This document shows, one piece after another, positions 33,474 to 33,635 of a stretch of 42,511 nucleotides of DNA; the first letter of the stretch is position 1, and every line of letters begins with the position of its first letter. The DNA lies in assembly GCA_902786245.1 (NCBI GenBank), contig CADABS010000034.1:1-42511 (forward strand). Direction: 5' to 3'. The position numbers were made by a program, and so were the translations under genes. A model generated the notes under the pieces. It did not search any database and had not been told where the DNA came from. It saw only the letters and a list, made by a program, of their open reading frames with translations. This DNA is from an uncultured Erysipelotrichaceae bacterium. GTDB lineage: Bacteria; Bacillota_I; Bacilli_A; Erysipelotrichales; Erysipelotrichaceae.

Positions 33474-33482
33474 TGCTATAAT
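33474..33482 (+). promoter_or_regulatory. tRNA promoter, extended -10
   Basis: TGCTATAAT is an extended -10 box 13 bases before the first tRNA base. The -35 region is T-rich with no clear hexamer. Confidence 0.6.
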
Positions 33483-33495
33483 ACTGTTTGCGGCT

Positions 33496-33535
33496 GTCCT
33501 CGTAGCTCAGCTGGATAGAGCGTCCGCCTCCTAAG
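33496..33535 (+). pseudogene. 5' half of tRNA-Arg (anticodon CCT), truncated
   Basis: The sequence has the acceptor 5' strand GTCCTCG, a complete D-arm (GCTC-AGCTGGATA-GAGC), and the 5' anticodon stem TCCGC. The anticodon loop is CTCCTAA with anticodon CCT. It stops there: the 3' anticodon stem, T-arm and acceptor 3' strand of tRNA-Arg are missing, and the sequence passes directly into a tRNA-Pro body. No 3' half of tRNA-Arg is present downstream. Confidence 0.85.
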
Positions 33536-33606
33536 GATGTAGCGCAGCTTGGTAGCGCACTTCGTTAGGGACGAAGTGGTCGCAGGTTCAAATCCTGTCA
33601 TCCCGA
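33536..33606 (+). tRNA. tRNA-Pro (anticodon AGG) with a damaged 5' acceptor end
   Basis: D-arm GCGC...GCGC, anticodon arm CTTCG-TTAGGGA-CGAAG (anticodon AGG), T-arm GCAGG-TTCAAAT-CCTGT and 3' acceptor strand CATCCCG with discriminator A are intact. The 5' acceptor should read CGGGATG, but here the bases before GGATG come from the tRNA-Arg loop (AAGGATG). The first two pairs are therefore lost, leaving five of seven. Whether RNase P and ProRS still accept it is unknown. CCA is not encoded. Confidence 0.8.
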
Positions 33607-33611
33607 CGCAA

Positions 33612-33635
33612 AAAAGCCCTTGAAATAGGGCTTTT
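33612..33635 (+). terminator. Terminator of the tRNA unit
   Basis: AAAAGCCC-(8 nt)-GGGCTTTT is an 8-bp perfect stem ending in a T-run. From 33640 to 33825 I see no gene, only AT-rich sequence. Confidence 0.85.

What the first reader, a model, noticed from the sequence alone, without database searches (positions are those of the whole stretch)
33496..33606. Chimeric tRNA locus: tRNA-Arg(CCT) 5' half fused to tRNA-Pro(AGG)
The sequence follows a normal tRNA-Arg through its anticodon loop (CTCCTAA) and then jumps into a tRNA-Pro body lacking its first two acceptor bases. This looks like a deletion inside a tRNA-Arg/tRNA-Pro tandem. It would remove tRNA-Arg(CCU) and leave tRNA-Pro with A-G and A-C at pairs 1-72 and 2-71. 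The locus keeps a promoter and a terminator, so a hybrid precursor should still be made. It could be a real recent collapse, an assembly error, or a functional oddity.
Basis: partly seen in the sequence, partly recalled or inferred. Interest (0 to 1): 0.75.

Follow-up and report, generated by a model that had tools for sequence, protein, structure and literature searches.

The report
Deletion-fused tRNA-Arg/tRNA-Pro relic gene
In this bacterial genome a small deletion of about 50 bases appears to have fused two neighbouring tRNA genes, destroying one and damaging the other, a rare but biologically ordinary event that other tRNAs in the cell can probably cover.

Summary
Window 33496-33535 is nt 1-40 of a tRNA-Arg(CCT), through the anticodon loop; 33535-33607 is a tRNA-Pro(AGG) from its third base; the two share one G. 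Congeneric genomes hold 17 distinct intact Arg(CCT)-Pro(AGG) tandems, eight with the same Arg type, so a deletion of about 50 bp with 1-bp microhomology is the simplest origin. The fusion is in no other of 70 genus genomes, and its junction 16-mer is in no tRNA among 84,980 species. The assembly (96.5% complete, 44 tRNAs) has no other tRNA-Arg(CCT) and no other tRNA-Pro(AGG) or (GGG). The Pro remnant has mismatches at pairs 1-72 and 2-71 and lacks C1:G72. In the predicted precursor fold its acceptor helix has probability near zero, against 0.33-1.0 in intact tandems. Both losses look tolerable: tRNA-Arg(TCT) and tRNA-Pro(TGG, CGG) remain, and a single-contig congener has tRNA-Pro(TGG) as its only Pro tRNA. 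No Thg1-like repair protein and no separate Arg 3' half were found. Most likely it is a recent deletion leaving a non-functional or weak relic. Without reads, an assembly error is not excluded. Interest is modest.

The parts
33474..33482 (+). extended -10 promoter element TGCTATAAT (inferred)
   Evidence: sequence; TCTGCTATAAT is also present upstream of intact tandems in G066, G067, G073, G043, G076; no -35/-10 pair passes the consensus scan
33496..33535 (+). 5' 40 nt of tRNA-Arg(CCT): acceptor 5' strand, D arm, anticodon stem 5' strand, anticodon loop CTCCTAA and one further base
   Evidence: identical to intact tRNA-Arg(CCT) 5' parts in congeners
33535..33535 (+). deletion junction: single shared G (Arg nt 40 = Pro nt 3)
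   Evidence: Arg matches end and Pro matches begin at this base
33533..33607 (+). tRNA-Pro(AGG) remnant; native bases from 33535; A1-G72 and A2-C71 mismatches; no encoded CCA
   Evidence: ARAGORN, Rfam RF00005 53.8 bits, 73/73 identity to relatives
33612..33635 (+). intrinsic terminator-like hairpin with T-rich tail

Best explanation
A real deletion of about 50 bp (46-56 nt in the 17 intact tandems, 47-52 nt in those with the same Arg type), with 1-bp microhomology, in an Arg(CCT)-Pro(AGG) tandem removed the 3' half of tRNA-Arg, the spacer and the first two bases of tRNA-Pro. SHOWN: the fused sequence, intact tandems in relatives, and no second copy of either tRNA in the assembly. INFERRED: the locus is still transcribed from its old promoter to its old terminator. 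The Arg remnant acts as a misfolding 5' leader. The Pro body, lacking C1:G72 and the second acceptor pair, is poorly processed and poorly charged, so the locus is a relic or at best a weak tRNA-Pro. The cell reads AGG with tRNA-Arg(TCT) and CCN with tRNA-Pro(TGG), plus tRNA-Pro(CGG) for CCG, and therefore tolerates the loss.
For: Intact tandems with the same Arg type in nine congeners (G066, G067, G076, G073, G043, G021, G071, G065, G015). No other Arg(CCT), Pro(AGG) or Pro(GGG) in G000 among 44 tRNAs. No detached Arg 3' half. Acceptor-helix probability about 0 in the chimeric precursor versus 0.33-1.0 in five intact precursors; 0.8 only if the leader is already removed. The two lost pairs cost about 6 kcal/mol in the isolated tRNA (-24.3 vs -30.1). 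C1:G72 and A73 are recognition elements of bacterial tRNA-Pro (PMC10164551). Redundancy: Pro TGG, CGG and Arg TCT tRNAs are present; G048 (one contig, 99% complete) has only Pro(TGG), and G042 only TGG and CGG. Arg(CCT) is detected in only 29 of 41 good-quality genomes of the genus (strict pattern, so a lower bound). AGG is rare in the window's genes (3.7 per 1000 codons).
Against: The Pro body has not decayed at all (73/73), which a working gene would also show. G72, A73 and the anticodon, the main ProRS contacts, are kept. No reads or RNA data were available, so neither the deletion nor its effect is directly proven. The assembly is fragmented (102 contigs), so a missing tRNA could lie in a gap. 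Flanking protein genes of the relatives' tandems do not match the window, so orthology of the locus rests on the tRNAs and the promoter element.
Confidence: 0.72

Rival explanations
1. Assembly or chimeric-read artefact: the genome really holds an intact Arg-Pro tandem, and about 50 bp were dropped in assembly.
For: Draft assembly in 102 contigs; the fusion occurs in this one genome only; the Pro body shows no decay.
Against: The junction shares only 1 bp, is out of register with the GTAGCnCAGC repeats of the two genes, and lies about 9 kb inside a contig. Repeat collapse in a k-mer assembler normally needs a much longer shared word (general knowledge).
Confidence: 0.15
2. Functional hybrid: the precursor is still cleaved near 33533 and gives a usable tRNA-Pro(AGG) with a five-pair acceptor stem.
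For: Perfect preservation of the Pro body, retained G72/A73 and anticodon, promoter-like element and terminator; the cleaved RNA refolds to a cloverleaf with acceptor pairs at 0.8.
Against: The precursor's acceptor helix is predicted absent; the C1:G72 pair is lost; there is no encoded CCA; the tRNA is dispensable in the genus.
Confidence: 0.1
3. 5' tRNA editing: a Thg1-like protein removes the mismatched bases and rebuilds C1-G2 on the 3' strand, as in protist mitochondria.
For: Mismatches at the first acceptor pairs are the kind repaired by Thg1-like proteins (PMC6471195).
Against: No PF04446 match in the genome at E <= 1; the same search rang in 3 of the 14 control genomes.
Confidence: 0.02
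4. Split tRNA-Arg: the 5' half is trans-spliced to a 3' half encoded elsewhere.
For: The break lies next to the anticodon, the usual split point of archaeal split tRNAs (general knowledge).
Against: A search with an intact Arg(CCT) found no separate 3' half; hits are other tRNA genes or short chance matches. Trans-splicing of tRNA halves is not established in bacteria (general knowledge).
Confidence: 0.01

Closest known systems
Loss of bacterial tRNA genes by deletion (one of four routes listed in PMC7661048)
   Same: A redundant isoacceptor disappears through a local deletion while other tRNAs read its codons.
   Different: Here the scar is still visible as an in-place fusion of two different tRNA genes, and one event hits both.
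tRNA-Arg(CCT)-tRNA-Pro(AGG) tandem of the same genus (e.g. G066, G043, G015)
   Same: Same Arg 5' half and near-identical Pro body, terminator downstream; in some the same extended -10 element.
   Different: 46-56 nt between Arg nt 40 and Pro nt 4 are missing in the window.
Mitochondrial tRNAs with mismatched 5' acceptor bases repaired by Thg1-like proteins
   Same: Encoded mismatches in the first acceptor pairs.
   Different: No Thg1-like protein detected here; the mismatches arise from a deletion scar.

Membership tests
Functional tRNA-Pro(AGG) | Seven-pair acceptor stem with C1:G72 | tested here: not met
   A1-G72 and A2-C71 in the CM alignment; C1:G72 named as the terminal pair recognised by bacterial ProRS (PMC10164551)
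Functional tRNA-Pro(AGG) | Intact D, anticodon and T arms, G72 and A73 | tested here: met
   73/73 identity with intact relatives
Functional tRNA-Pro(AGG) | Precursor folds so that RNase P can define the 5' end | tested here: inconclusive
   Predicted acceptor helix probability about 0 versus 0.33-1.0 in intact tandems; prediction only, without modifications or proteins
Functional tRNA-Pro(AGG) | Aminoacylation and use in translation | not testable with these tools
   needs tRNA-seq or a charging assay
Functional tRNA-Arg(CCT) | 3' half (anticodon stem 3' strand, T arm, acceptor 3' strand) | tested here: not met
   absent at the locus and elsewhere in the assembly
Deletion-derived tRNA relic | Intact ancestral arrangement in close relatives | tested here: met
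   17 distinct intact tandems, eight with the same Arg type; flanking protein genes do not match in the 1.5-kb flanks
Deletion-derived tRNA relic | Junction supported by independent reads | not testable with these tools
   no reads available

The most novel reading that the evidence does not exclude
The fused gene still makes the cell's only tRNA-Pro(AGG), which works with a five-pair acceptor stem and no C1:G72, meaning that this lineage's processing and prolyl-tRNA synthetase tolerate, or repair by an unknown route, a broken acceptor end.
Probability: 0.07. Interest if true: 0.6.

Novelty: new member of a known kind. Interest (0 to 1): 0.27.

Why it matters
It is a rare snapshot of tRNA gene loss caught at the stage where one small deletion fuses two neighbouring tRNA genes, in a genus where both appear optional. 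If the remnant proved active it would be a natural test of how much of the acceptor end bacterial RNase P and ProRS really need.

Tried and rejected
Split tRNA with a distant 3' half: none found. Thg1/TLP repair: no homologue. A wider family of such fusions: the junction 16-mer hits 40 contigs among 84,980 species, no hit lies in a predicted tRNA, and those read look protein-coding. In-register homologous recombination or repeat collapse between the two tRNAs: the breakpoints are out of register with the shared repeats. Integrase crossover at the Arg anticodon loop: considered because an integrated element uses tRNA-Pro(CGG) elsewhere in the genome (L040), but the Arg break and the Pro break share only one base, so no common core exists. 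Rfam hits to Trp_leader, SpF41 and YrlA lie below their gathering scores and were dismissed. Synteny of protein genes around the tandem: no match in the 1.5-kb flanks. The first Pro(AGG) pattern had a wrong gap length and was redone. Literature searches for natural fused bacterial tRNA genes found nothing directly comparable.

Full report
What is there. The window sequence runs GTCCTCGTAGCTCAGCTGGATAGAGCGTCCGCCTCCTAAG (33496-33535) and continues without a break as GGATGTAGCGCAGCTTGG...CATCCCGAC (native Pro bases from 33535; G 33535 is shared by both). The first part is nt 1-40 of tRNA-Arg(CCT), the second is tRNA-Pro(AGG) from nt 3. ARAGORN calls only tRNA-Pro(AGG), 33533-33607; Rfam RF00005 scores 53.8 bits and marks the two top acceptor pairs as non-standard, A1-G72 and A2-C71. 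A hairpin terminator follows at 33612-33635. An extended -10 (TGCTATAAT, 33474-33482) precedes the Arg part, as in several intact relatives, although no two-hexamer promoter passes the scan. No CCA is encoded: A73 is followed by CGC.

Is it a fusion, and of what. In 70 genomes of the same genus the Arg part and the Pro part each match many loci, with the boundary at base 33535. ARAGORN on the fetched loci finds Arg(CCT) directly followed by Pro(AGG) in many congeners, with one of two Arg types (GTCCTCG... or GCCCCCA...). Seventeen distinct intact tandems were extracted, eight of them with the same Arg type as the window (nine genomes, since G043 and G073 are alike there). Between Arg nt 40 and Pro nt 4 they carry 46-56 nt (47-52 nt in the same-type ones) that the window lacks. 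The window's fusion is therefore best explained as the product of a deletion of about that size with a single shared base at the ends. The breakpoints do not lie at the GTAGCnCAGC repeat that the two genes share, so neither in-register recombination nor a simple repeat collapse by an assembler gives this product. The fusion is contiguous in no other genome of the genus. An exact scan for its junction 16-mer in one genome for each of 84,980 species gave 40 contigs, none with a predicted tRNA at the site; the ones read look like protein-coding sequence.

What the cell has left. The assembly (2.75 Mb, 102 contigs, 96.5% complete) has 44 tRNA genes, and reading them gives Arg ACG, TCT, CCG and Pro TGG, CGG besides the fusion. 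A T-arm-anchored pattern finds no Arg(CCT) in it, and only the fusion for Pro(AGG); Pro(GGG) is absent too. Across the genus the same patterns find Arg(CCT) in 49/70, Pro(AGG) in 35/70 and Pro(GGG) in 14/70 genomes; these are lower bounds because the patterns are strict. The tRNA sets of two single-contig congeners were read in full: G042 has only Pro TGG and CGG, and G048 only Pro TGG. A tRNA-Pro(UGG) that reads all four CCN codons is known in E. coli when U34 is modified to cmo5U (PMC4519876); whether this genus has an equivalent U34 modification was not tested, but G048 implies that TGG alone suffices. AGG (3.7 per 1000), CCC (5.3) and CCT (4.8) are modest among 11,360 codons of the window's main reading frames, a small sample.

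What the fused RNA would do. In the isolated 74-nt Pro RNA the two lost pairs cost about 6 kcal/mol in the minimum free energy fold (-24.3 against -30.1). In the whole predicted transcript the five remaining acceptor pairs have probability near zero, because the Arg leader captures parts of the Pro sequence; in five intact tandem precursors the acceptor helix has 0.33-1.0. If the leader were already cut off at 33533, the helix would return at about 0.8. These are predictions for unmodified RNA at 37 C. Bacterial ProRS uses G72 and A73, and the C1:G72 pair is the distinctive terminal pair of tRNA-Pro (PMC10164551); the fusion keeps G72 and A73 but loses C1. A Thg1-like 3'-5' polymerase could in principle rebuild the 5' end (PMC6471195), but none was detected in this genome.

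Judgement. The best reading is a real, recent deletion that abolished tRNA-Arg(CCU) and left tRNA-Pro(AGG) non-functional or weak, tolerated because both are redundant in this genus (0.72). The absence of any decay in the Pro body fits a recent event, but would also fit continued use. An assembly or read artefact (0.15) cannot be excluded without reads. A functional hybrid (0.10), 5' editing (0.02) and a split tRNA (0.01) are less likely. The event is a member of a known kind, tRNA gene loss by deletion (PMC7661048); no published natural bacterial case of two fused tRNA genes turned up in the searches made, which covered an open-licence library only.

Noticed in passing
L040:361-6686 (G000:C16:42760-49085, minus strand): A 45-bp copy of a tRNA-Pro 3' half lies 6.2 kb downstream of the intact tRNA-Pro(CGG). 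Between them sit a tyrosine integrase next to the copy, an HTH protein, an NrS-1 polymerase-like protein and a D5-type helicase: apparently an integrated element using tRNA-Pro(CGG) as attachment site.
   Followed up: partly
G014:C1:123868, G060:C118:259, G065:C42:12321, G045:C54:4504: Partial tRNA-Pro 3'-half copies also occur in other congeners, in G014, G060 and G065 4-9 kb from a whole tRNA-Pro on the same contig; this suggests that tRNA-Pro is a recurrent integration site in this genus.
   Followed up: no
window 33565-33571 (loop TTAGGGA); 35 of 70 genomes of the genus: tRNA-Pro with an A34 anticodon (AGG) is common in this bacterial genus and alternates with Pro(GGG) behind Arg(CCT) (e.g. 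G074:C81:5223-5385). In most bacteria Arg(ACG) is the only A34 tRNA (PMC8007984). The genome has one TadA-like protein (148 bits, just below the 150-bit cut-off) and a weaker second deaminase hit. Whether A34 of this Pro tRNA becomes inosine is unknown.
   Followed up: partly
congeners with Arg type GCCCCCATAGTAAAACGG (e.g. L011) versus GTCCTCGTAGCTCAG (e.g. L117): Two very different tRNA-Arg(CCT) types occupy the same place in front of near-identical tRNA-Pro(AGG) genes, as if the Arg partner had been exchanged. The window's Pro body is identical to those behind the GCCCCCA type, while its Arg half is of the GTCCTCG type.
   Followed up: no
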